A stretch of DNA of 64,000 bases, taken from assembly GCA_017961325.1 (NCBI GenBank), contig JAGCXM010000018.1, positions 1-64,000 on the forward strand, written 5' to 3'. The translations under genes and the position numbers were made by a program. This document shows positions 39,737-57,768 of this stretch, in pieces (within the stretch, counting starts at the first letter, position 1; the number at the start of each line of letters is the position of its first letter). Below the pieces are notes generated by a model that was not told the DNA's origin, searched no databases, and saw only the letters and a program-made list of their open reading frames with translations. The DNA comes from a bacterium. GTDB lineage: Bacteria > UBP6 > UBA1177.

Positions 39737-40942
39737 TTACATCACTTCAGTTTTATCCAGTAACCAGTTTGCAATATCCACGATACGGATTCCTTCATAT
39801 TGATATGTTTCCTGATGTGTTCTTGCCAGGATCATTTTCGGATAGGCGTCTTTTATTGCAAGAAGCGGTGCGTATTCCCGTTCGAATGTTTCGGGATTGT
39901 CTATATATTCGGAGACTTGGATATATATCTTTTCATCTTGCCTGATTGCAACAAAGTCGATCTCTTTTTTGTATAAAACACCTGCATATACTTCATAGCC
40001 GCGTCTTAAAAGTTCGATTGCCACTATATTCTCCGAAATTCTGCCAAAATCAGGGTTGCGTGTTCCCAAACGAGCACTTCTGAATGACGGATCGGCAAGA
40101 TAATACTTGTCGTTTGAAGCCAGATACTTTTTTCCTCTTATGTCATATCGTCTTACTCTGTAAAAACCGAAAGCGTTACACAGATAGCTTATATATGCAC
40201 CGACAGTCTTATCGTTTGTTTTTATTTTGTTCAAGAGAAGCGTATCCGCCATTTTGTTCGCAGAAACAATATTCGAAACATTGTCCATCAGATAATCAAT
40301 TATCTTGTCCAGAAGCGGGATATTCCTGATTTTATACTTTTTTACGATATCCCGGATCACAAGCGTTTCAAAGACATCGTTTAAATATTTGGTCTGCATA
40401 CTTGGATCTGAATATAGATAACTCCCTGACATTCCGCCGCTATTGCGGTATTCCGTATATGCCTTGTAGGCATCGTTTAAATCAAAGTATTCCATATATT
40501 CTTTCAGTGAAAAAGGATATACTTCAATGCTGTAGGTTCTGCCGGTAAAAAGCGTCGCAAGGTCACTGCTGAGCAAAAAAGCATTGGAACCGGTCACATA
40601 AATATCGTAGTTTCCTGAAGAGTGGAGGCTGTTGAGCGTGATCTCGAATCTGTCGCACAACTGCACTTCGTCAATAAACAGGTAATTGTTTTTTTCACTT
40701 ACGTAATGTTCTTTAACAAAAGAATTTAACTTGCGGTATTCCTTGATCTCATCGTAATCAAGATTGGTGAAATCAATATATATGATATTCGCTTCTTTAT
40801 CTGTTTCACGGATATACTGGATAAAAGCTTCCATCAGTTTTGATTTTCCGCTGCGACGGATTCCTGTAATCACTTTTATATCCGGAACACCTTTTACGCG
40901 TTTTAATTGTTCCATATAAAACGGTCTTTCGATGATTTTCAA
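39737..40942 (-). CDS. AAA ATPase with DUF4143 domain (first of two)
   Basis: About 401 residues. TTG 40942 gives the usual family start (KIIERPFYMEQL) and has GGAGG eight bases upstream; the GTGs at 40948/40951 overlap the site. Walker A GIRRSGKSKL (about 26-35), Walker B YLFIDEVQL, sensor VTGSNAFLLS, then a C-terminal DUF4143 nuclease-like domain (FRSARLGTRNPDFGRISENIVAIELLRRGYEV, KEIDFVAI). Such ATPases are common accessory genes of unknown purpose. A distinct paralogue lies at 56458. Confidence 0.9.
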   Translation of the reverse strand: MKIIERPFYMEQLKRVKGVPDIKVITGIRRSGKSKLMEAFIQYIRETDKEANIIYIDFTNLDYDEIKEYRKLNSFVKEHYVSEKNNYLFIDEVQLCDRFEITLNSLHSSGNYDIYVTGSNAFLLSSDLATLFTGRTYSIEVYPFSLKEYMEYFDLNDAYKAYTEYRNSGGMSGSYLYSDPSMQTKYLNDVFETLVIRDIVKKYKIRNIPLLDKIIDYLMDNVSNIVSANKMADTLLLNKIKTNDKTVGAYISYLCNAFGFYRVRRYDIRGKKYLASNDKYYLADPSFRSARLGTRNPDFGRISENIVAIELLRRGYEVYAGVLYKKEIDFVAIRQDEKIYIQVSEYIDNPETFEREYAPLLAIKDAYPKMILARTHQETYQYEGIRIVDIANWLLDKTEVM

Positions 40943-40967
40943 TGTCACCACCTCCTTTTTCGTAAAT

Positions 40968-45298: not shown

Positions 45299-45880
45299 TT
45301 ATGATTTAGTGTCGTATTCCCTGCTTTTTTCTTCAAGCAGATTAAAATCGCAACAGAATTTCGCGATTTTGCCAGTTGATTTCTGATTATCGTATAAATT
45401 CGAGGCTTTTTGAACAACAGAATCGATAATTTTGATGCAGAAAGAGTATTCGATGTTTAACAAGACCTTGTATTTTTTCATGTCTTCAGAATCATCGGGA
45501 GAAAAATTCAAGTTTATTTCGGAGTAAAGTCCTGGTTTTACAGGAATCATTTTTTTCAGATCTATGACTGAAATGATGTGTTTCAGCGAACCGTCGGGAT
45601 TTTCCGTATAGATGCCGTTAAGTGCTTTTTCAGACTTTTTGCAGTTTTCAAAAATTAGAAAACGGTCGATATCGACATTTTTTCATGATTTGTGTTTTTC
45701 CTTAGCGGAAGAAAGCGGAATCACATATTCATTTCCTTTGTCTTCAACAAGAATTCCAAGATAAGGTTTTGTTTCATAACCGACAGGCTGCCAGTATACT
45801 TCCTTGCAGAAATCGTGAAGATATTTCAAATATTTCTGATCTATAGAAATGAATTTCAGATTATTTTTCAGAGAGAACAA
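45299..45880 (-). pseudogene. ToxN/AbiQ-family type III toxin gene interrupted by one in-frame TGA
   Basis: From TTG 45880 (GAGGAAAAC site) the frame reads about 65 residues with the ToxN/AbiQ pattern: ISIDQKYLKYLHDF, KPYLGILVEDKGNEYVIPLSSAKEKHK. It meets TGA at 45683-45685 and then continues in the same frame without another stop to 45299: KNVDIDRFLIFENC, HIISVIDLKKMIPVKPGLY, including the MIPV block of the family. Total about 193 codons, near ToxN length. So a single nonsense change splits an otherwise full toxin. TGA is a normal stop in the neighbours, so recoding is unlikely. The family consists of endoribonucleases that cut their own antitoxin RNA. Confidence 0.75.
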
Positions 45881-45890
45881 AGTTTTCCTC

Positions 45891-45918
45891 AAAAAAAATA
45901 GGCTGCCCGAAAGCAGCC
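45891..45918 (-). terminator. Intrinsic terminator between antitoxin RNA and toxin
   Basis: Stem GGCTGC/GCAGCC (45901-45906, 45913-45918) followed on the minus strand by TATTTTTTTT. In type III loci such a terminator sets the antitoxin-to-toxin RNA ratio. Confidence 0.85.
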
Positions 45919-45972
45919 CTCGTTAATCTTCATCTCTTTGCGGAAATCCGCAGGTTAATGGAGACCTTCCGA
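45893..45972 (-). ncRNA. Candidate ToxI-like antitoxin RNA
   Basis: A consensus promoter (45979-46006) would start transcription near 45972. An intrinsic terminator ends it near 45893, just before the toxin ribosome site. The RNA would be about 80 nt. It holds two ATTAAC copies 32 nt apart and a small hairpin (TGCGGA/TCCGCA). Promoter, short RNA, terminator, then toxin is the type III toxin-antitoxin layout. The clear multi-copy 35-nt repeat of ToxI is not seen, so the antitoxin is either a one-to-two-unit type or eroded. Confidence 0.5.
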
Positions 45973-45978
45973 CCAAGA

Positions 45979-46006
45979 AGTATAGAGATGAAAATAAAAA
46001 TGTCAA
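45979..46006 (-). promoter_or_regulatory. Strong sigma70-type promoter of the type III antitoxin RNA
   Basis: Perfect TTGACA (46001-46006) and TATACT (45979-45984) with 16-bp spacing on the minus strand, just past the Vsr gene stop. Confidence 0.65.
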
Positions 46007-46031: not shown

Positions 46032-46562
46032 TTAATTTTTATTTTTCTTGAATGCGTTTGCTTCAGTGGCTTTGTATTCTGCATCCGGTTCCGCTGCGGC
46101 GGCGAAACCGCTGTCAAGGTCGGGGTATTCGAAAGGTTTTTGCGGGTTTTTGCCGATTTTGGAGATGACTTTCGCCATCGTCTCTTCGAAAGAGGATGAT
46201 TTCAGCTCGCATTCCCAGACAACGATCACATTCCAGCCGCTTTCCTGCAAGGTTTTGTAGTTTTTGAGGTCGCGTTCGCGGTTGCGGGAGATTTTGGATT
46301 GCCAGAATTCGACATTCGATTTCGGCATCACGAATTTGTCGCACCCGTCGTGACCGTGCCAGAAACAGCCGTTCACGAAAATCACGGTTTTGTATTTCCT
46401 CATCACGATGTCGGGTCTGCCGGGAATATCCTTCACGTTCAGGCGGTAGCGGTAGCCGTGCTCCCACAGCCATCTGCGGACCTTGAGTTCAGGTTTTGTG
46501 TTTTTGCTGCGGATGCGGGACATGTTTTTGTGGCGCTGTGTTGGTGTGAGGACGTCGGTCAT
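46032..46562 (-). CDS. vsr: Very short patch repair (Vsr) endonuclease
   Basis: 176 residues. Vsr nicks 5' of T:G mismatches made by deamination of 5-methylcytosine. Seen: TPTQRHKNMSRIRSKNTKPEL, then IPGRPDIVMRKYKTVIFVNG with the catalytic Asp, and CFWHGHDGCDKF with zinc/catalytic His and Cys. The C-terminal ~35 residues are an extra polar tail. The start overlaps the mcrC stop (4 bp). Vsr genes normally sit beside a cytosine-5 methyltransferase, which is not present in this window. Confidence 0.94.
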   Translation of the reverse strand: MTDVLTPTQRHKNMSRIRSKNTKPELKVRRWLWEHGYRYRLNVKDIPGRPDIVMRKYKTVIFVNGCFWHGHDGCDKFVMPKSNVEFWQSKISRNRERDLKNYKTLQESGWNVIVVWECELKSSSFEETMAKVISKIGKNPQKPFEYPDLDSGFAAAAEPDAEYKATEANAFKKNKN

Positions 46563-48832
46563 GGTTTTATGTACTGCATCAGTTCCTCACCTGTTTTGAA
46601 AACAGGAGCACCTTCCGGATATTCTTCGGAATTTCCGGCTTCGGAAATGATTTTTTCAAGGTCAATTTTTGATGACAGCTGCACTTCCTCGTCAAAAACG
46701 AAGCAGAAGTAGTTCCCTTTAGGATCGGGGTAAAGAGCCTGACGCATTCTGGCTTCATCCATCGTGGCATGGTGATGAACATGGAAAACTCTGTATTGGT
46801 TGCTGTTTTCTTCACCGAAACGGTATAAAATCACGAATTTAACATCCGTTCCTGCAAGAAATGCCGGTGACAATGCTCCGTCGCGGACAACGCTTCCGCG
46901 TTTTTTCAGGCGGACATTGTATAGATTCGTTTGTTTGTCGTTTTTACCGAGAATCCAGGCCAGCTGTTCGTCTGAATGATAGCATCCGATGAGAAAATGC
47001 TTGTTCTGGTAACGCTGGATATGGTGCACTGTAAGCAGTGATGAAGGAACTGCAGCAACTTGTGTCGGTTTAACTTCCGGCAGCAGTTTTGCAGGATTGT
47101 CGCCAAGTTTACATTCTTCGTAGTAAAATCCGGGTTCAAGCAATGCCAGAACAAGTTCGTTTTCGCTCCCGAACTTCGGATCACTGTCAAGAGCAAGTGA
47201 ATAGTATTTTTGCTGACCTTCGATGTTGTACGGAGTGAAAACTTTTCCCAGAAGCTGCTGAAAATTTTCTTTAAGGAATTCGTCGGCATTAACGCCTTCG
47301 CGCGGTGTCATGGCATAGAAATCATATTGTTTTTCCAGCATTTTCTGAATCTTGCTGCGGAATATTTCCCTGACTTTTTCTTTCCATGCTTTTTTCTGTA
47401 ATGCGTTGTTTCGGGCGTAAAGCGACACGACATATAGGAAATTTACATCATAGTGGCAAATCAGGAGAGTGTCGCGGTCGAAAAGGCGGTTGTCGAACTG
47501 GCGGTTTGTGAAAAAATTCGTTTGCTTGTCCGCAAGCTCAATATCATCGTTGTAATCCAGCTTTTCGTTAAGACGGGCACTGATGAAAAAATTCGGAATT
47601 ATGTTGTAACCTTCGGTCACATTGTCGCGCAGTTTGGGTACATTGCGGAAATTCTGTTTGTCGAACTGTAAATCCTTGTCGTCTTTGTCATCATTCATAA
47701 ACAGGTTCAGATTCCACTGGATGACATTTCTGGCATAAGTGAACTGCTTATAAACCGACTGTTTTCCGATTTCTCCTTTGCGTTTGTAATATTTGCTGTC
47801 GCCGATGTAATAAATCGGCTTATCCTCTTCGTTGTTTATCAGATTTTTGTATGTGAAAATATGATCAACCAGTTTGCCGTCTTCCTGTTCCTTCAGTCCT
47901 TTCGGTATGTTTTCCGTGTCGCCTACAAGTTCGTCAATGATTGCTTCGAAAACGATATTGTAGTTTTTGACCAGAAGATATTCTTTCTGTTCTGCACTGA
48001 TTCTGATTTCCTTTGCTCTGTCAAAGAAGGCATAGCAGAGATTCCAGAGTTCAAGAGCTTTGTCGGAAAAATATTTGTATTTGATCTGCAGAAGTCTGGT
48101 TTTTCCGAGACCTTTCAGATATGTCTCAAACTGTCTGCCTTTGATCAGATCGAAATTGCAGTCGGTATTTTTCGGGAATCCGTAAGTATCGCCGATGTAG
48201 TTTAGAATTGAAAAGAAGATGACAAGCAGTTCTTCATCGAAATTTATCTGCCGTTTTTTGTTTACCGGATTCAGATAAACAGGATTCTGATCCTGAATGA
48301 TTGCGTTTGTCGTGCTGATTGTGCGGTTCCAGTTGATTTTGTTGATGCCTGAATGGATATTGCGGAGCACGAAAAAGAAGAAATTTTTGTTCTCGCGGTT
48401 GAATCTGATGATTTCAAGCAGAATATCAAGAAAAGTATTGCTTAACCTGCGGCTTCCTCTGCCTGCTTTGGCAATCTGCTTGTGATAGACGATGCCGGAA
48501 TCAATATGGCGATCCTTAAAAACCACGATTGAGCGGTAAATCCACACCGAAAACTCATAAATGAAGGAATATTCTTCTTTCGAGAGCGGATTATTGGCAT
48601 CAAGGTCAATTATTGATTCAGGGGAATATTTGCCGAATACAAGTTCCTGATTGTCGCCTTCGAGAAGCACTTTCGGAAGAATGAATACACAGTCTTTCAG
48701 TTGGGGGTTGTAGTAATAACCGACATAGTGGATTGAAACTTTGCCTTCGATATTTTCCAATGCGTCAATGCCGCTGATAACCTCTTTAACATCAGCTGCG
48801 TTGTACTTGTATTCTTCGATGAGGATGTGCAT
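46559..48832 (-). CDS. mcrC: McrC-like (LlaJI-type) restriction nuclease subunit
   Basis: 757 residues, much larger than E. coli McrC. The DUF2357-like layout has an N-terminal beta-rich region, then a PD-(D/E)xK nuclease core about 330-365: DHIFTYKNLINN, then the catalytic IYYIGDSKYYKRKGE (Asp-x-Lys). The C-terminal ~250 residues may be an added DNA-binding or regulatory part. It is the cleavage partner of the McrB-type motor upstream, as in the LlaJI/McrBC group. ATG 48832 has only a weak ribosome site; a 26-bp palindrome precedes it. Confidence 0.82.
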   Translation of the reverse strand: MHILIEEYKYNAADVKEVISGIDALENIEGKVSIHYVGYYYNPQLKDCVFILPKVLLEGDNQELVFGKYSPESIIDLDANNPLSKEEYSFIYEFSVWIYRSIVVFKDRHIDSGIVYHKQIAKAGRGSRRLSNTFLDILLEIIRFNRENKNFFFFVLRNIHSGINKINWNRTISTTNAIIQDQNPVYLNPVNKKRQINFDEELLVIFFSILNYIGDTYGFPKNTDCNFDLIKGRQFETYLKGLGKTRLLQIKYKYFSDKALELWNLCYAFFDRAKEIRISAEQKEYLLVKNYNIVFEAIIDELVGDTENIPKGLKEQEDGKLVDHIFTYKNLINNEEDKPIYYIGDSKYYKRKGEIGKQSVYKQFTYARNVIQWNLNLFMNDDKDDKDLQFDKQNFRNVPKLRDNVTEGYNIIPNFFISARLNEKLDYNDDIELADKQTNFFTNRQFDNRLFDRDTLLICHYDVNFLYVVSLYARNNALQKKAWKEKVREIFRSKIQKMLEKQYDFYAMTPREGVNADEFLKENFQQLLGKVFTPYNIEGQQKYYSLALDSDPKFGSENELVLALLEPGFYYEECKLGDNPAKLLPEVKPTQVAAVPSSLLTVHHIQRYQNKHFLIGCYHSDEQLAWILGKNDKQTNLYNVRLKKRGSVVRDGALSPAFLAGTDVKFVILYRFGEENSNQYRVFHVHHHATMDEARMRQALYPDPKGNYFCFVFDEEVQLSSKIDLEKIISEAGNSEEYPEGAPVFKTGEELMQYIKP

Positions 48833-48858
48833 TATTACTTATCTTGTGATACCACGGT

Positions 48859-48884
48859 AATTGTGCAACGCGCGTTGCACAATT
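48859..48884. promoter_or_regulatory. 26-bp perfect palindrome between mcrB and mcrC
   Basis: The half-site AATTGTGCAACGC is repeated as its exact reverse complement with no spacer (48859-48871, 48872-48884). It lies in the 69-bp gap, 27 bp before mcrC. No T-run follows, so a dyad operator or mRNA hairpin is more likely than a terminator. Confidence 0.7.
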
Positions 48885-48901
48885 GATTCGTCAGATCGTA
48901 A

Positions 48902-50317
48902 TTACTCATTGTTGTTTCCTGTATTGTCTTCTTTGTTCAGTACTTCTATTCCCAAATTCTTCAGAAACAACTCTACTTTGCTCTCGGCAATCTTTGTTTC
49001 ACCATTATCTGTCGTATAGAACTTGTTGAAAGACAACTCTTTACCGTCTTCGTCTTTGAAAATATCGTTGTCGAATCCGAAATCCTTGAAGACATCGTTC
49101 CAGAGGTAGAAAATGACTTTGCTGACAAATTTTTCCGCACTGATAATGCCGTCGTTATCTGCTTTACAGAAGAAGTATCCGAGTTTCTTGTCTTCCGAAT
49201 TGGTTGTGCTCCCGATTTGTTCATTGATTTTTTCAATGAAATCCCACCAGTCGTATTCATCGTTGTTTACGGCAATCCGCCATCCTTTATTACAGTTGTG
49301 AATCGGCACATATTCCCAGTCCCAGCGGCGTTTGAAAGCCGAATCAATCGGGAAAAGTGACTGGTCACTTGTGTTCATCGTAGCCCAAATGTAGAGGTTG
49401 GACGGAAGAACAAGAATTTCGCCTTTTCTTATTTTTACAGCGGTTTCTTCGGAGTTCATGCCGCAAAGAGCCGGAGCATTCAGAAATACCATGTTGGTAA
49501 AAACCGAATCCAGATATTTTTTCATGTCTTTGTCAGCTTTTATCGGATATTCCGAAAATCCCTCTTCGTCACGGTCAAGCAGCTGGAACAAATCACCGAA
49601 AATCTGAGCGCAGTTGCCGCGGTTGATTTCTTCGATGACCAGATACTGTTCTTCCGGCTGTTTGCCTTCTTTTACCGCCTGAGCATAAAGTTTCCATGCG
49701 TTTGTATATGCCTGAAGAAAAGCCTGATCAACGAATTCATAAATTATGCGGTCTTCAGTTATCTGCTGACCGTCGGCACCTTTAACTGCAACAGCCTTTT
49801 CGCCGTAAGTAGAAAATACAGGAACCTGCTTTGTTGTCGGCTTGTATGCACCTACGAAAGTTGAGTAGTCGCTGTCCGGATGAAAAGTTGTGCGGATAAC
49901 ATTTTTGCCTTCAGTCAGTTTCTTGATTGCGTAAGATTTTCCTGTGCCTGGAGCACCGTAGAAGATGCGCTGGAGAGGGGAGAGATGAAATCTATTCGCT
50001 CTTTTTGCTAACCTTAAAATTTTTTCTTGCCCAAGTATCATTTTGGCCATGGTTACAAGAGTTGCACCATAACCGTATTCGTATTTATCAATATCGCTTT
50101 GTCCCGATATTTTAAAACGTATGTCAGTCGTCGGAACTTCAGGGTGTTGCTCCATAAAAGTTACAAACTCTTGTAACAATGCTTTAGATATTGTTCTAAG
50201 CCCGACAGCTCCTTTGCTGTCTGATTTTACAAGATAGCAAAGTCTGTCTTCATCAATGATGGTAATTTGACCGTTTTCTGAACTGTCTCCGACATTTAAT
50301 TTGTTTGTTTTGATCAT
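48902..50317 (-). CDS. mcrB: McrB-like AAA+ GTPase subunit
   Basis: 471 residues. AAA+ motor of a McrBC-type system. Walker A YGAPGTGKSY (about 120-129), Walker B YLVIEEINRGNCAQIFGDLFQLLDRD, and the McrB-specific ATMNTSDQSLFPIDSAFKRRW with sensor Asn/Asp and arginine. The N-terminal ~110 residues would hold the specificity domain and are not recognised as EVE/YTH or other named reader. The C-terminus is Asp/Asn-rich. It is separated from mcrC by the palindrome gap. Confidence 0.92.
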   Translation of the reverse strand: MIKTNKLNVGDSSENGQITIIDEDRLCYLVKSDSKGAVGLRTISKALLQEFVTFMEQHPEVPTTDIRFKISGQSDIDKYEYGYGATLVTMAKMILGQEKILRLAKRANRFHLSPLQRIFYGAPGTGKSYAIKKLTEGKNVIRTTFHPDSDYSTFVGAYKPTTKQVPVFSTYGEKAVAVKGADGQQITEDRIIYEFVDQAFLQAYTNAWKLYAQAVKEGKQPEEQYLVIEEINRGNCAQIFGDLFQLLDRDEEGFSEYPIKADKDMKKYLDSVFTNMVFLNAPALCGMNSEETAVKIRKGEILVLPSNLYIWATMNTSDQSLFPIDSAFKRRWDWEYVPIHNCNKGWRIAVNNDEYDWWDFIEKINEQIGSTTNSEDKKLGYFFCKADNDGIISAEKFVSKVIFYLWNDVFKDFGFDNDIFKDEDGKELSFNKFYTTDNGETKIAESKVELFLKNLGIEVLNKEDNTGNNNE

Positions 50318-50430
50318 GGATTTTGTTCCTTAATATCTGTTAATTCTATTTGTTTTGCTTGATTGTATTACAAAAACAAAGCACTTTGTAATTGATAAAA
50401 ATTTTTAATCTTCCTTTTTGATCATTATTG

Positions 50431-51471
50431 TTATGCAGCATGTGTTTTGGTAATAGGTATAGGTTTTAGATACTTAAAATTTTGCATAAAAACTTTTAAA
50501 TCAGCTCCCACAAAGTCATAATTTTCTAAATTAATATCTTTCTTTTCATCTCGTGCATCATAAACAAGCAAATATCCAGTACGTAAACTTTTTTCAGAAG
50601 TATTAAGAAGTTCTTTTATATACTCTAAGGTTTGAGTTACACCTTCTTTTACTCTTTTAACTCCATATGGTGTACTAATTCCGGTTCCAGAATCATTAAT
50701 TGAAACACCAATCCATTTAATTTCAATAAAATACAGTTCTCCTCTAACATCAAAATATATATCATTCCTCTTCTTCGATTGCCCCAATTCAACTTCTACA
50801 TTAAAAGTATATTGCATATGCTCTGTTAAATACTGACACAATTGATCCCTCATATAATGCTCTGGTTTATTTTTTAGGATATTACGATTAATAAGAGATG
50901 AATCAATCTGACGTAGGGTTGCATTATCTGCTAAAATGCACATATAATTTACTTGTTGTGTTAAATACTGCTTTGCATATTCATCCAAAACAATCTCTAA
51001 CTGAGATATATCTCTTTTTTTTAGATATCGCATTCTGTCTTCATGACTATAAAAAAAATTGTTATCTTCTATCGCCTCCCCATCAATATAGAGAGTAACA
51101 CCTTCTTCTCCAAAGAAAAAAACAACATTGTCATATGATTCAGATTCTAATTGTTTTCGTACTCCAAAAGTATTTCCTAATAGGTATTTTTTCTCGAGAA
51201 TATCGCATGATGCATTAATTTTAATGAAATTATTCTCCCGGATTTCACTCTCAACAACTTTTAGCTTTTCTGTAAAAACTGAAAATTGTATTGAATCCAA
51301 AATCTCATTCGGAATAGCTATTGAGAATAAATTCCTTTTATTAAGCTGCTTTTCCCAAAATTCTTGAAAAACTCTTCTATGCAAAATATCAATTTTATCT
51401 TGGTTTTTTTTGTGTGTTTGTTTAACTTTTATAATTTTTTTTAGCAAATCATCAGAAAAAGAAAAATCCAT
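50431..51471 (-). CDS. PD-(D/E)xK nuclease-like effector of an ABC-three-component system
   Basis: 346 residues. A C-terminal nuclease core is visible: HYMRDQLCQYL (helix), then NDIYFD (Asp237) and ELYFIEIKW (Glu250-x-Lys252), the D...ExK pattern of restriction-fold nucleases, followed by a helix with QTLEYIKELL. The N-terminal ~180 residues are not recognised and include GEEGVTLYIDGEAI. Its start overlaps the middle-component stop by 1 bp (TAATG). Position downstream of an ABC ATPase and a middle component makes it the likely effector. Strongly AT-rich. Confidence 0.75.
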   Translation of the reverse strand: MDFSFSDDLLKKIIKVKQTHKKNQDKIDILHRRVFQEFWEKQLNKRNLFSIAIPNEILDSIQFSVFTEKLKVVESEIRENNFIKINASCDILEKKYLLGNTFGVRKQLESESYDNVVFFFGEEGVTLYIDGEAIEDNNFFYSHEDRMRYLKKRDISQLEIVLDEYAKQYLTQQVNYMCILADNATLRQIDSSLINRNILKNKPEHYMRDQLCQYLTEHMQYTFNVEVELGQSKKRNDIYFDVRGELYFIEIKWIGVSINDSGTGISTPYGVKRVKEGVTQTLEYIKELLNTSEKSLRTGYLLVYDARDEKKDINLENYDFVGADLKVFMQNFKYLKPIPITKTHAA

Positions 51472-52085
51472 TATTTTTCCCCCCTCAAGATTTTTCCAAA
51501 AATATATTCAAAATATAGTTTTAAGTAATCTTTGTTATCAAGAATATCGTCTTCTTTTGTCAGTTTACTTTCAAATGCATCTTTGAACTTATTTAAAAAT
51601 TTTACCGTATCATTGTCAGAGCCAATATTAAGGTTATAGACAGAATTGGATTCTAAAGAATTTTTATACTCTGGATCCCTGAAAATGAAATCAAAAATTT
51701 TATCTTCTCCATAAACACCAAGTATAAAAGAAATATCATCAAACCATGAATCCTTTAACTCATAATTTTCTGATGAAATAGTATGGTTGATATGAGATAG
51801 CCCATATCCTTCTTCAGAATGAATCAATAATTCATTTGCTTTTAAATTTGTAACAGCATTGTCAATATCGGCATCTTCAGGCCCACTCAAAGTTCGTGTA
51901 AAATTATAATCGTCCTTAAATATATTATCTTTTTCAGTATATCGGAAAGAATACAAAACTGCAGATAAATATAGAATACGGTTTATTGAAGATTCACGAA
52001 CATATTTCCAACCGATATTCTCTAGTTTTGTTAATAGGAGTAAAATATCTTCACTTTTTAGAATTATTTCATCATATCTAGCCAT
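51471..52085 (-). CDS. ABC-three-component system middle component
   Basis: 204 residues, helical: EDILLLLTKLENIGWKYVRESSINRILYLSAVLYSF, FTRTLSGPEDADIDNAVTNL and NELLIHSEEGYGLSH, resembling a winged-helix-like small domain. This is the middle-component pattern of ABC-3C systems, which link the ATPase sensor to its effector. It overlaps the ATPase gene by 8 bp upstream and the nuclease gene by 1 bp downstream. Family assignment is by context and overall form. Confidence 0.7.
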   Translation of the reverse strand: MARYDEIILKSEDILLLLTKLENIGWKYVRESSINRILYLSAVLYSFRYTEKDNIFKDDYNFTRTLSGPEDADIDNAVTNLKANELLIHSEEGYGLSHINHTISSENYELKDSWFDDISFILGVYGEDKIFDFIFRDPEYKNSLESNSVYNLNIGSDNDTVKFLNKFKDAFESKLTKEDDILDNKDYLKLYFEYIFGKILRGEK

Positions 52086-54057
52086 TACAAATGTCCTCCA
52101 ATTCGTCAGATAACTTTTTTAAGATATCATGGTGCTTTTGAACTTCTGAAACTTTTCCGATTTTAAATAAGTTTAGAATTTTTTTGTTTTTTGTCTTGCC
52201 TAATATAGTTTTTATGAACGATGTATTATTCAAGTTTGTGGTCATAATAAGAACATTTGGAAAACTGATATATTTTACAAAAATATCAGCCGCGTTTTCT
52301 TCATAAGAAACATCTAAACTACTATCTGGTGTTTCACAGATATAAAATGACCCTGTTGTGTAAAAAAAGTTTAAAACACTCATTCTAAAAGAATAATCAA
52401 CAAAAAAACGCTGTGATTCTGAAAGCTCATCTTCATCATAACGAGCAACATTGTCTATTATCGGGAAAAACAATTTAATCATTTTATCTTTAACTTTCTT
52501 GTCTTTTACAGACTCCAAAGTTAGACAACATGGTAACTTCATAAATGCCTCTGCAAAATCTGCGAAAACATTTGAAATATTTCTTGTGTTTGCCTGTAAA
52601 CTATCTTCAATTCTTTTGGCTATTTCAGATGCATTTTTAAACAGCTCTTCACTTTTTCCTTGATGTTCTTCCTTTTCTTTATTTAATTGATCAATTCGAT
52701 TCATCATGATCTTATATGAAAAATCTTGATTGCTATTGCTGTTCTCGCTGGATTCAAGAGAACGTAAGATAGCGTTTTTGTCAAATAACTTGATTTTCAA
52801 ATTTCTATATTCCGAGTCTAATTTTTTTAAGATCTTCTCGTTCTCAGTAATTAATTTCTCATATTTAGTTCTTTCAGATATTAAATTTAAAATCTCGCGT
52901 TTCAAATCAGAGATTTTTTCATTTCCATCAGAAATACCAGCTATTTTTGTGTGGCAGAAAAAACATTCATCAGAAGAAGTTTTTACTTTTTTAATACTTA
53001 AATCTGAATTACAAAAAGGACAAATTCTGTTGATCTCATACTGCTTTTTAAAGATTTCGTATTTAGGATTTAAATCTTTCCAAACTCTATTCATATGTAT
53101 GGAATCATATTGTTCTTTTTCCTTTTCTTTTTGATTTAAAGCTGTAGATAAATCTGCTGTTTTCTTGTAATAAGATTTTGTTTCTTTTTCTATCTCAGCC
53201 TGTTTTTTTTCAACGGAATCTTGCTTCTTTTCTAAAGAGTCAATTTCCTCCAATATTTTTAATTTTTTTATATCAGCATTATCTGAATTGTCTTCATTTA
53301 TTTGCTCAACAACTCTCTTAATGGCTTTTATTTCTTCTTGTGTATGCCTTGCCAAACTGTCCTGATACTTTGCTTCAAATTCAAAATCTTTTCTTTGTTT
53401 TTCATATTTTGGATCATTAAAAAACGCATTCATTAAGCGTTCTTGCGCATCTTCATTCCACAAAACATTTTCTCTGGATTCGCCAAAAAACAAAATTTGA
53501 TTTACAAAAAAGATAAAATCATCAAAATCTGACAGATTGGCTTCTTTAGACACAAGGATTTCATAATTGTATTGTAAATTATTCTTATTCTTTCCAGCAT
53601 CATTATAATCTTTATAAGAATCCTGATTTATTGGTTCACCTTCAACGATTGTTTTAAGTCCATTTTTTATAACATTCACTTCGAGAATCTTTGCTTCATA
53701 CAAGCTGCGTTTTACAACAAACAGAGTCTCGTTTATCATAAAATGTAATTCGACAAAACCTTCTTTATCAGACTCAACAAGCTTTGTTCTATTTCTAAAA
53801 AAAGAATCGCTGTTTTTATAACTTTCTCTTGTAAGTCTTTTTTCACCTTTGTAATTTTTCACATCTAACTGTTTCTTATACAATCCAATCAAAGCGTATT
53901 TTAAAATATTTATAAATGTTGTTTTTCCGACTCCATTTCCACCGACAATCAGATTAAGTCCTTCAATAAAATCATAATCAATATCTTCACTATAAAGAGA
54001 ATAATTTACAATTTTAATCTTTTTTAATGTTGGTAAATAAACTTTATGATCTTCCAT
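52078..54057 (-). CDS. SMC/Rad50-like ABC ATPase with zinc-hook coiled coil (ABC-3C ATPase)
   Basis: 659 residues. Walker A LIVGGNGVGKTTF (39-47). A coiled coil (about 225-340 and 370-480) is capped by four Cys at about 346, 349, 365 and 368 (CPFC...CFFC), a zinc hook. The signature LSESQR is at 545-550 and Walker B YICETPDSSLD at 572-582. The ETPDSSLD form of Walker B is typical of the ABC-3C/overcoming-lysogenisation-like ATPases of conflict systems. Such ATPases are thought to sense foreign DNA or its replication. It starts 4 bp after the methyltransferase gene. Confidence 0.85.
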   Translation of the reverse strand: MEDHKVYLPTLKKIKIVNYSLYSEDIDYDFIEGLNLIVGGNGVGKTTFINILKYALIGLYKKQLDVKNYKGEKRLTRESYKNSDSFFRNRTKLVESDKEGFVELHFMINETLFVVKRSLYEAKILEVNVIKNGLKTIVEGEPINQDSYKDYNDAGKNKNNLQYNYEILVSKEANLSDFDDFIFFVNQILFFGESRENVLWNEDAQERLMNAFFNDPKYEKQRKDFEFEAKYQDSLARHTQEEIKAIKRVVEQINEDNSDNADIKKLKILEEIDSLEKKQDSVEKKQAEIEKETKSYYKKTADLSTALNQKEKEKEQYDSIHMNRVWKDLNPKYEIFKKQYEINRICPFCNSDLSIKKVKTSSDECFFCHTKIAGISDGNEKISDLKREILNLISERTKYEKLITENEKILKKLDSEYRNLKIKLFDKNAILRSLESSENSNSNQDFSYKIMMNRIDQLNKEKEEHQGKSEELFKNASEIAKRIEDSLQANTRNISNVFADFAEAFMKLPCCLTLESVKDKKVKDKMIKLFFPIIDNVARYDEDELSESQRFFVDYSFRMSVLNFFYTTGSFYICETPDSSLDVSYEENAADIFVKYISFPNVLIMTTNLNNTSFIKTILGKTKNKKILNLFKIGKVSEVQKHHDILKKLSDELEDICNG

Positions 54058-54061
54058 CTTT

Positions 54062-55420
54062 CTACTTTTTCTCCAAAACGATTACACCTTCAAGCAATTT
54101 ATCAACATGCTCTTTTTGCTGAGGGCTTGTTTTTAAATAACGGGCTTTTCTGATTTCCTGTACAGAAAAACCGATATCTTCTGCAATAGAAGCACAAATA
54201 TCAAGAGTTTTTATCTCCACATTAAAATATGCAGAGTTTGAAACATTAAAATAAACCTTCCCGCCTTTTCGCATTTTTTTGTACAACTCTTTAAAAAGAG
54301 TATCCATATCTACAAAATAAAGACGAATCATATCTATTATGGAAGGGTTCCATAAAGTGAAATTTTTCGCAGACTTATCCAATCTCTTTAAAGTAGATTT
54401 AAGAAGTGAATTTTTTATGTCAGCATTATCATGCCAATGAATCTGAACATGTGAACGAAAGGTGTGTTCTCTCAGATTTTGGATCTGAGCATTATCTTTA
54501 GTAAATCCCAAAGTTTTCAGCTCGAGCATATAAGTGTCTGTATAGTCACGTGAATTAAGATACGGAGGCGAAGTGATTACCAAGTCGATGGAATTGTCTT
54601 CGACTTTTTCATTTATGGCAAAACGAGAATCTGAATTGAAAAGAAAGCTTTTGTTTTTCTGAGAAAATTCTACATTCGGCTTGAATGAATTTTTTATATC
54701 TTCCAATAGCTCATCTGTTACTTTTTTATCAAATTTTGTAAAGACATCTTCCTTAGTCAGCTTTATTGAAGTCCAATTTTTTTTATATGAAAGGCATTTT
54801 CCGTTTCTATATAAGTTCGAGACATCAAGCAATATCGCAGCTAATGCTATCGTAAATAAATCTTTATAAATTTCCTCATTTATTGCATCGATTGCGATTT
54901 TAAGTTTTTTTACCGCCAGACCGACTTCATTGTCATAATTCCATTTTTTGCTTTTGTCTGACTGATATAAAGTCGGAAAAACAGAAGAATCCAAGTTGGT
55001 GTCATTTAATTTATTCCGGGTGTTTTTTATGCTTGCAAACCAATAATTTGCTCGTTCATAAGTATATTCGGTTTCAAGTTTCACTTTGCCAATCAAATAC
55101 ATGAGAGGATTTATTTCGAATGAGTAGCATTTTATTCCAAGATTCTGTAATTCAAGAGCGGTTGTTCCACTACCGGAAAATGGTTCCAGACAACATTCTA
55201 TTTTTTGTTCTTTATTTTCATCTATTATTGATTGAATAAATTCTTTTGAGTAACCTTCAACAAAAGGATACCATCGATGGATCGGTTCCTGTTTATTCTT
55301 ATTAAACTGCATGATACGCCCGTAAGTATCCGTAAAATCTGCATAGTTATATTTTAACGCATCATTTGACATACACTGGTCAAAACGGTTATAACCACAT
55401 GAATCTTGCATTTTGCACAT
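54062..55420 (-). CDS. DNA methyltransferase (N6-adenine or N4-cytosine type)
   Basis: 452 residues. SAM-binding motif I EPFSGSGTTALE (about 79-90) and catalytic motif IV TSPPYLNSRDYTD (about 283-295), with about 190 residues between them holding a target-recognition-like helical region. The SPPY tetrad marks an exocyclic amino-methyltransferase. The Cys-rich N-terminus (MCKMQDSCGYNRFDQC) may be a leader; the Met at residue 17 is a later possible start. It is first in a four-gene AT-rich operon with the ABC ATPase, middle component and nuclease, so it may protect host DNA from that nuclease. Confidence 0.87.
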   Translation of the reverse strand: MCKMQDSCGYNRFDQCMSNDALKYNYADFTDTYGRIMQFNKNKQEPIHRWYPFVEGYSKEFIQSIIDENKEQKIECCLEPFSGSGTTALELQNLGIKCYSFEINPLMYLIGKVKLETEYTYERANYWFASIKNTRNKLNDTNLDSSVFPTLYQSDKSKKWNYDNEVGLAVKKLKIAIDAINEEIYKDLFTIALAAILLDVSNLYRNGKCLSYKKNWTSIKLTKEDVFTKFDKKVTDELLEDIKNSFKPNVEFSQKNKSFLFNSDSRFAINEKVEDNSIDLVITSPPYLNSRDYTDTYMLELKTLGFTKDNAQIQNLREHTFRSHVQIHWHDNADIKNSLLKSTLKRLDKSAKNFTLWNPSIIDMIRLYFVDMDTLFKELYKKMRKGGKVYFNVSNSAYFNVEIKTLDICASIAEDIGFSVQEIRKARYLKTSPQQKEHVDKLLEGVIVLEKK

Positions 55421-56457: not shown

Positions 56458-57768
56458 CTACAGCTCGATGCTGTTTTTATCCAGCAGGAACGGAATTACG
56501 CCGATATAAATGATCCCGTTTTCGTCAACGCTTCTTTTTCTGTTTCCGTTCTCAACGACGATTTTTTTGAAAAAGTCCCCGCTGTTTAGGAGCGGCTTGA
56601 TCTCCTGCAGTTTTTTTTCTTCGTTTTCGATGCTGAATGCCGACTGGACGTAGGTTTTGCTGAATCCGTGGTTGACTATGAAATCAATTTCAAGTTTTGT
56701 CCTTTTCTGAACTCTGTTTTCGCTCTTTGAAACTTCGACGACACCGACATCAACGGAATATCCGCGTGAAACAAGCTCGTTGTATATGATATTTTCCATT
56801 ATGTGCGTTCGTTCCTGCTGGCGGAAGTTGAGTTTTGCGTTTCTTATGCCGATGTCAGTTGCATAGTATTTTACAGGAAAGTCGAGATATTTTTTGCCTT
56901 TGATGTCGTAACGGAGGGCTTTTCTGATGATGAAAGAGTCTTCTAGATACTCAAGATATTTTTTGACGGTATGGTCTGACAATTTTAAATTGTTTAATGA
57001 ATTCAGAGTGTTGGTCAGTTTGTGAGGATTCGAGAGAGAACCCGTTGCGGAAAAAATCACATCGATAAGTCCGTTCAAAGCAGCCTCTCCGTCCAGATTG
57101 TAGCGCTCGGCAATATCCTTCAGATAAATATGTGAGAAAAGCTTTTTAAGATAGTCCGCTTTTCCCTTTTCAGTTTCTTCAAGAACGGCGAGAGGCATAC
57201 CGCCGAATGTCAGGTATTCTTCCCATGCATCCGATTTCTCGAGACCGCAGTATTCATAATATTCACTGAAACTTAAAGGGAAAAGATTGATTTCTGTTCC
57301 TCTGCCTCTGAAATTCGTGGCGACATCCTTCGAGAGAGTCCTGGAATTGCTTCCGGTGACATAAATATCAAGATTTTCTCTGGACATGAGATCATTCAGG
57401 ACATCGTAGAAAGTTGTGTAGAGCATCATTTGATCGTCTTCGGCGACTTTCGAGGCATCTATATCCTTTTTGATTTTGTATGAGAGCTGGATTTCATCAA
57501 TGAAAATGTAAAAATCTTCGGTATTGTTGATTTTTGAAAGAATGTATTTGTATAAATTCTCAGGATTACGCAACTCTTCAAAAGCCATTTTGTCCAAAGC
57601 GATCTGAATTATATGGCAGTCATCCACACCTTCAGAATTCAGGTATTCTTTAAAGATTTTGAAAAGCAGGTATGACTTGCCGCATCTGCGAAGTCCTGTG
57701 ATTATTTTTACAAAGCCGTTTTTCCTCTTTGAAATCAACTGGTTAAGGTAAGAATTTCTTTTTATCAT
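56458..57768 (-). CDS. AAA ATPase with DUF4143 domain (second of two)
   Basis: 436 residues. Walker A GLRRCGKSYLLF (about 25-36), Walker B FYIFIDEIQL, sensor VTGSNSRTLS, then the DUF4143 C-terminus with RNAKLNFRQQERTHIMENIIYNELVSRGYSV and LEIDFIVNHG. It differs from the 39737-40942 protein in length and detail, so it is not a recent duplicate. GGAGGTC precedes ATG 57768. It lies between repeat copies A and B and probably travels with the Phd/RelE pair. Confidence 0.9.
   Translation of the reverse strand: MIKRNSYLNQLISKRKNGFVKIITGLRRCGKSYLLFKIFKEYLNSEGVDDCHIIQIALDKMAFEELRNPENLYKYILSKINNTEDFYIFIDEIQLSYKIKKDIDASKVAEDDQMMLYTTFYDVLNDLMSRENLDIYVTGSNSRTLSKDVATNFRGRGTEINLFPLSFSEYYEYCGLEKSDAWEEYLTFGGMPLAVLEETEKGKADYLKKLFSHIYLKDIAERYNLDGEAALNGLIDVIFSATGSLSNPHKLTNTLNSLNNLKLSDHTVKKYLEYLEDSFIIRKALRYDIKGKKYLDFPVKYYATDIGIRNAKLNFRQQERTHIMENIIYNELVSRGYSVDVGVVEVSKSENRVQKRTKLEIDFIVNHGFSKTYVQSAFSIENEEKKLQEIKPLLNSGDFFKKIVVENGNRKRSVDENGIIYIGVIPFLLDKNSIEL

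What the first reader, a model, noticed from the sequence alone, without database searches (positions are those of the whole stretch)
45299..46006. Type III toxin-antitoxin locus with toxin stopped by a single in-frame TGA
A perfect TTGACA/TATACT promoter, an about 80-nt RNA, a strong terminator and then a ToxN/AbiQ-like frame form the type III layout. The toxin frame is conserved on both sides of TGA 45683-45685, in the same frame. This implies a very recent inactivation, a reversible loss-of-function state, or a sequencing error. The antitoxin RNA lacks the obvious long tandem repeats of classical ToxI.
Basis: partly seen in the sequence, partly recalled or inferred. Interest (0 to 1): 0.6.

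Follow-up and report, generated by a model that had tools for sequence, protein, structure and literature searches.

The report
Broken ToxN, single-unit RNA antitoxin
A gut bacterium carries a toxin gene that was recently cut short by a stop codon while its RNA antidote stayed intact; the antidote is a single copy of a unit that other bacteria carry in tandem, and complete lone copies also sit in four large phage genomes, where they could disarm the toxin.

Summary
Window 46006-45299 (minus) has promoter, ~80-nt RNA, terminator, then a ToxN frame (PF13958, 133 bits read through) with one TGA at codon 66. Near-identical alleles in sister species have a sense codon there, always Trp. Against the closest, the window differs by 5 synonymous and 3 missense changes plus the stop, so the lesion is recent; sequencing error cannot be excluded without reads. 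TGA is a normal stop here. Three other alleles in the genus carry different lesions (deletions, frameshift), two with promoter and RNA fully preserved.

The missing repeats are real. The RNA is one complete antitoxin unit, single at all 17 loci of this type in the genus and in Treponema zioleckii (isolate record), but tandem (2 to at least 4 copies, 51-54-nt spacing) before homologous toxins in Lachnospiraceae-type Firmicutes and one Treponema. It fits the ToxI pseudoknot layout with an added, covarying hairpin.

Beyond the finding: four large phage contigs (139-218 kb) and one Agathobacter plasmid carry complete solitary copies; the phage records hold no ToxN and none is annotated beside the plasmid copy. 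They look like natural RNA decoys. Known family, new variant.

The parts
45979..46006 (-). promoter, TTGACA-16-TATACT
   Evidence: conserved before homologous loci
45893..45972 (-). predicted antitoxin transcript, about 80 nt including terminator; start inferred from the -10
45922..45972 (-). single antitoxin unit
45964..45967 (-). stem S1, 5' side (AGGU), pairs with 45952-45955 (ACCU)
45957..45960 (-). probable stem S2, 5' side (CAUU), pairs with 45931-45934 (GAUG); invariant, untested by covariation
45940..45951 (-). extra hairpin in the last loop, covarying
45900..45919 (-). intrinsic terminator stem-loop between RNA and toxin
45299..45880 (-). toxN frame (start TTG 45880), interrupted
45683..45685 (-). 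in-frame TGA at codon 66

Best explanation
A chromosomal type III toxin-antitoxin module of the ToxN/AbiQ family whose antitoxin is one pseudoknot unit rather than a tandem array. In intact copies a single promoter would make mostly the short RNA (stopped at the terminator) and some read-through toxin mRNA; the ToxN ribonuclease would trim the RNA and be held inactive by it. In this genome the toxin frame has recently been cut by a nonsense mutation at codon 66, so the module is now effectively antitoxin-only. The RNA is untouched and probably still made; since its core is identical to that of the intact paralogous module on contig C22 of the same genome, it may add to neutralising that toxin. 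Shown: layout, family, single lesion, intact relatives, single unit. Inferred: transcription, processing, neutralisation, loss of toxicity.
For: PF13958 133 bits across the stop; solved-structure relatives are ToxN/AbiQ. Four ToxN loci in this genome, ToxN in 15 of 15 genomes of the genus. Near-identical intact alleles; first 65 aa 100% identical. dN 0.0065, dS 0.045 against G014:C63 with the stop codon left out. Other lesions in G005:C10, G010:C1 and G012:C41; promoter, RNA and terminator identical in G005:C10 and, bar one T added in the terminator tract, in G010:C1. Same RNA unit in tandem before homologous toxins. Hairpin covaries (5 of 5 pairs change on both sides). Residues beyond the stop (Asn79, Gln117 in E. 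coli ToxN) are needed for toxicity (PMC8860590), so the 65-aa product should be harmless. TGA is a stop in 10 of 45 long window ORFs; no tRNA-Sec above threshold.
Against: No reads, no expression data. A consensus error would give the same picture at this one base. The S2 stem is invariant, so covariation cannot test it. Experiments on other systems found that at least 1.8 repeats of antiQ and 2.5 of ToxI were needed (PMC5086642), so activity of a natural single unit needs proof. This assembly lacks RF2, though a whole 5.9-kb stretch is missing with it.
Confidence: 0.85

Rival explanations
1. The TGA is a sequencing or assembly consensus error and the toxin is intact in the organism.
For: Single base, otherwise intact frame; draft assembly in 48 contigs.
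Against: Sister alleles carry other lesions that cannot be single-base errors, so toxin loss is common in this allele group; only this one of the four ToxN loci of the genome has a stop.
Confidence: 0.13
2. The antitoxin RNA is kept by selection after toxin loss, as an anti-addiction or anti-decay device that protects against the paralogous or incoming ToxN.
For: Promoter and RNA preserved beside broken toxins; solitary units on a plasmid and in phages.
Against: The lesions are too young for the RNA to have decayed, and an antitoxin cannot be lost before its toxin, so toxin-first decay is expected without selection.
Confidence: 0.25
3. TGA is read through (reassigned codon, selenocysteine or programmed suppression), giving a full toxin.
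For: The column is Trp in relatives and this assembly shows no RF2.
Against: TGA ends 10 of 45 long ORFs, some overlapping the next start as ATGA; all 14 sister genomes have RF2 and a 5.9-kb stretch holding it is missing here; no tRNA-Sec above threshold.
Confidence: 0.02

Closest known systems
ToxIN / AbiQ family type III toxin-antitoxin systems (ToxIN of Pectobacterium and Bacillus thuringiensis, AbiQ of Lactococcus)
   Same: Toxin family, promoter-RNA-terminator-toxin order, pseudoknot layout, catalytic motif
   Different: One antitoxin unit instead of 2.8-5.5; 51-54-nt unit with an extra hairpin, against 34-36 nt; toxin disrupted here
CptIN and TenpIN type III systems
   Same: Longer antitoxin unit (45 and about 50 nt)
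   Different: Different toxin families; their arrays are about 2.1 units; here the toxin hits ToxN/AbiQ structures
pseudo-ToxI of phage PhiTE (PMC3475682)
   Same: Phage-borne copy of a type III antitoxin unit without the toxin (compared with the phage copies found here)
   Different: PhiTE wild type carries 1.5 DNA repeats that do not make one full unit and must expand; the four phage contigs here carry one complete unit with the conserved core
Racr RNA anti-CRISPRs (solitary repeat units, PMC10651486)
   Same: Solitary viral copy of a host repeat unit used as RNA decoy
   Different: Mimics CRISPR repeats, not a toxin-antitoxin RNA; function of the units here is untested

Membership tests
Type III toxin-antitoxin, ToxN/AbiQ family | toxin homologous to ToxN | tested here: met
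   PF13958 133 bits over the full profile; PADLOC AbiQ 89.5 bits for the intact sister; ToxN/AbiQ solved structures
Type III toxin-antitoxin, ToxN/AbiQ family | RNA gene then intrinsic terminator directly upstream of the toxin, one promoter | tested here: met
Type III toxin-antitoxin, ToxN/AbiQ family | antitoxin is a tandem array of repeats | tested here: not met
   single unit; the same unit is tandem in Firmicutes relatives
Type III toxin-antitoxin, ToxN/AbiQ family | unit folds as an H-type pseudoknot | tested here: inconclusive
   template fits but weakly against shuffles for this unit; first S1 pair and the hairpin covary, S2 invariant
Type III toxin-antitoxin, ToxN/AbiQ family | complete toxin frame | tested here: not met
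   TGA at codon 66 here; intact in sister alleles
Type III toxin-antitoxin, ToxN/AbiQ family | toxin is an endoribonuclease neutralised by the RNA | not testable with these tools
   needs an expression experiment
phage antitoxin mimic (pseudo-ToxI type) | phage carries an antitoxin unit without the toxin | tested here: met
   4 phage records, one unit each, no PF13958 hit; the records may be incomplete
phage antitoxin mimic (pseudo-ToxI type) | the RNA suppresses the host toxin during infection | not testable with these tools
   needs a phage and host experiment

The most novel reading that the evidence does not exclude
Type III antitoxins can be single complete pseudoknot units, and unrelated large phages carry such solitary complete units as ready-made RNA decoys against ToxN, the toxin-antitoxin counterpart of RNA anti-CRISPRs.
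Probability: 0.6. Interest if true: 0.65.

Novelty: new variant of a known kind. Interest (0 to 1): 0.5.

Why it matters
[quoted passage not shown] The same unit in single and tandem form gives a natural series for asking why arrays exist. Complete solitary units in large phages would be a natural RNA counter-defence, so far known in the held literature mainly from the PhiTE escape mutants. The nonsense toxin itself is ordinary decay of a toxin gene.

Tried and rejected
Rfam at gathering threshold and at E up to 10 for the RNA: only chance-level matches. RNAfold nested structure GGUCU/AGAUU: broken in up to half of the relatives, so not preferred. My first S2 (CUC/GAG) was replaced by CAUU/GAUG because it fits the loop lengths of the other ToxI units; both are invariant. 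Recoding of TGA: rejected. Loss of RF2 in this organism: rejected as a probable assembly gap, since a 5.9-kb stretch with Lgt-like and YchF-like genes is also missing. Orphan RNA units elsewhere in the genus: none; the one weak hit (G004:C1, 25.9 bits) lies in a sequence that reads like an ordinary coding region. Phage copies of two other antitoxin types of the genus (C13, C34): none by exact pattern. Relaxed viral pattern: two extra hits with only 16 and 11 bits, taken as chance.

Full report
What is there. On the minus strand, window 46006-45979 holds TTGACA-16-TATACT, followed by about 80 nt of RNA with a terminator at 45919-45900, then a frame from TTG 45880 to 45299 with one TGA at 45683-45685. 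Read through, the frame matches Pfam ToxN_toxin across the whole profile, 133 bits. A profile of the intact relatives finds ToxN and AbiQ among solved structures.

The stop. The window's genome (48 contigs, 2.35 Mb) has four ToxN loci; only this one has a stop. All 15 genomes of the genus have ToxN. They are gut metagenome assemblies, mostly from ruminants; one record title reads UBP6_UBA1177 and others read Spirochaetales bacterium. Near-identical intact alleles occur in G014, G008, G009 and G012. The TGA falls in a column that is Trp in every intact long-form relative, including Treponema and Firmicutes. Against G014:C63 the window has 5 synonymous and 3 missense differences plus the stop; dN 0.0065, dS 0.045 with the stop codon left out. 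The remaining 65-residue product is identical to the intact allele. It keeps the positions aligned with the catalytic Lys33, Thr52, Ser53 and Lys55 but not Asn79 and Gln117, whose mutation abolishes toxicity in E. coli ToxN (PMC8860590). TGA is an ordinary stop here: it ends 10 of 45 long ORFs in the window, there is no tRNA-Sec above the curated score, and all 14 sister genomes have RF1 and RF2.

Not alone. Within the same allele group, G005:C10 has an internal deletion of about 110 nt and a one-base insertion, G010:C1 an internal deletion of about 216 nt, and G012:C41 an internal deletion. In G005:C10 the 169 nt from promoter to codon 16 are identical to the intact allele; in G010:C1 the promoter and RNA are identical and one T is added in the terminator tract. 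This makes a real lesion in the window more believable than an error. It does not show selection for the RNA, because an antitoxin cannot be lost before its toxin.

The antitoxin. The RNA unit AAGGUCUCCAUUAACCU-hairpin-AAAGAGAUGAAGAUUAA occurs once at each of 17 loci in the genus and once in Treponema zioleckii kT3, a named strain record. The same unit is tandem, 2 to at least 4 copies at 51-54-nt spacing, before homologous toxins in Lachnospiraceae-type Firmicutes and in a horse-faeces Treponema assembly. Self-similarity separates single-unit from three-unit loci (11-13 of 25 against 20-21 of 25); it does not pick up the two-unit C34 type, whose units are too diverged and were recognised by structure. 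Across the antitoxin types in the genus and relatives, one template fits: S1, three-base loop, S2, short gap, S1', loop, S2', A- or UUUAAA-rich tail. For single units the template is weakly discriminating against shuffles (for the window 80 of 300 shuffles score as high, and the top-scoring solution there is a different one), so its support is the agreement among types. In this type S1 is AGGU/ACCU, S2 probably CAUU/GAUG, and the last loop carries a hairpin. All five hairpin pairs and the first S1 pair show changes on both sides; 25 double-change cells against 9.7 in shuffles, covariation 0.208 against 0.081. S2 never varies and remains untested.

Recombination. Toxins of two groups (about 60% identical) share nearly the same unit, and promoter, hairpin and terminator variants are mixed between groups, for example G008:C73 with a C22-like unit before a C46-like terminator and toxin. 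This suggests that the RNAs are interchangeable between these toxins, so the window RNA may act on the intact C22 toxin of the same genome. This is inference.

Phage copies. An exact core pattern found four IMG/VR contigs of 139-218 kb. A stricter pattern found the same four; the reversed pattern found none. Each record has one unit (53-57 bits) and no ToxN hit. The units lie outside the ORFs of 60 aa or more listed there. The model scores are partly circular because the core was the search pattern; the independent part is the AAA before GAGAUG, the tail, the hairpin pairing and the new S1 pairs (GC in L144, GU in L145). Phage nature is supported by a terminase hit, baseplate and head protease matches in G015, RNA ligase, polynucleotide kinase and ribonucleotide reductase around the unit in G016, a weak terminase hit about 7 kb from the unit in G017, and endolysin, dCMP deaminase and tRNAs in G018. 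A solitary unit behind a promoter-like sequence also lies on an Agathobacter rectalis plasmid with no annotated toxin in the 5 kb shown (the gene table is incomplete). PhiTE carries 1.5 repeats that do not make a full unit until expanded (PMC3475682). RNA anti-CRISPRs are the nearest analogy (PMC10651486).

Known or new. By toxin and gene order this is a type III ToxN/AbiQ locus. It fails the tandem-repeat criterion, and published tests needed at least 1.8 antiQ or 2.5 ToxI repeats (PMC5086642); a single CptI repeat was used as a construct in kill/rescue work (PMC4627078). I found no report of natural single-unit type III antitoxins in the held library; the key survey (Blower 2012) is not held, so novelty is provisional.

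Noticed in passing
L142:982-1037, L143:2274-2327, L144:10831-10883, L145:8380-8433: Four large phage contigs each carry one complete copy of the antitoxin unit and no ToxN hit; possible natural RNA decoys.
   Followed up: yes
L148:2497-2552 (NZ_CP143948.1, Agathobacter rectalis plasmid): Solitary antitoxin unit behind a promoter-like sequence with no annotated toxin nearby.
   Followed up: partly
window 9496: Synteny with sister genomes breaks exactly here; the adjoining 5.9 kb with RF2, an Lgt-like and a YchF-like gene is absent from this assembly although all 14 sister genomes have RF2. Probably an assembly gap.
   Followed up: partly
L001, L002, L039/L040, L008, L011: Five further ToxN antitoxin types in the same genus, with one, two or three units; the genus looks like a natural series for antitoxin array length.
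   Followed up: partly
window 46032-55420: Cluster next to the module: Vsr, an AAA protein with type II restriction enzyme similarity, a type II methyltransferase, an LmuB-like ATPase, and large proteins without family match (46559-48832, 50431-51471).
   Followed up: partly
window 39737-40951 and 56458-57768: Two AAA_14/DUF4143 ATPases that match PADLOC candidate PDC-S01, one on each side of the module region.
   Followed up: no
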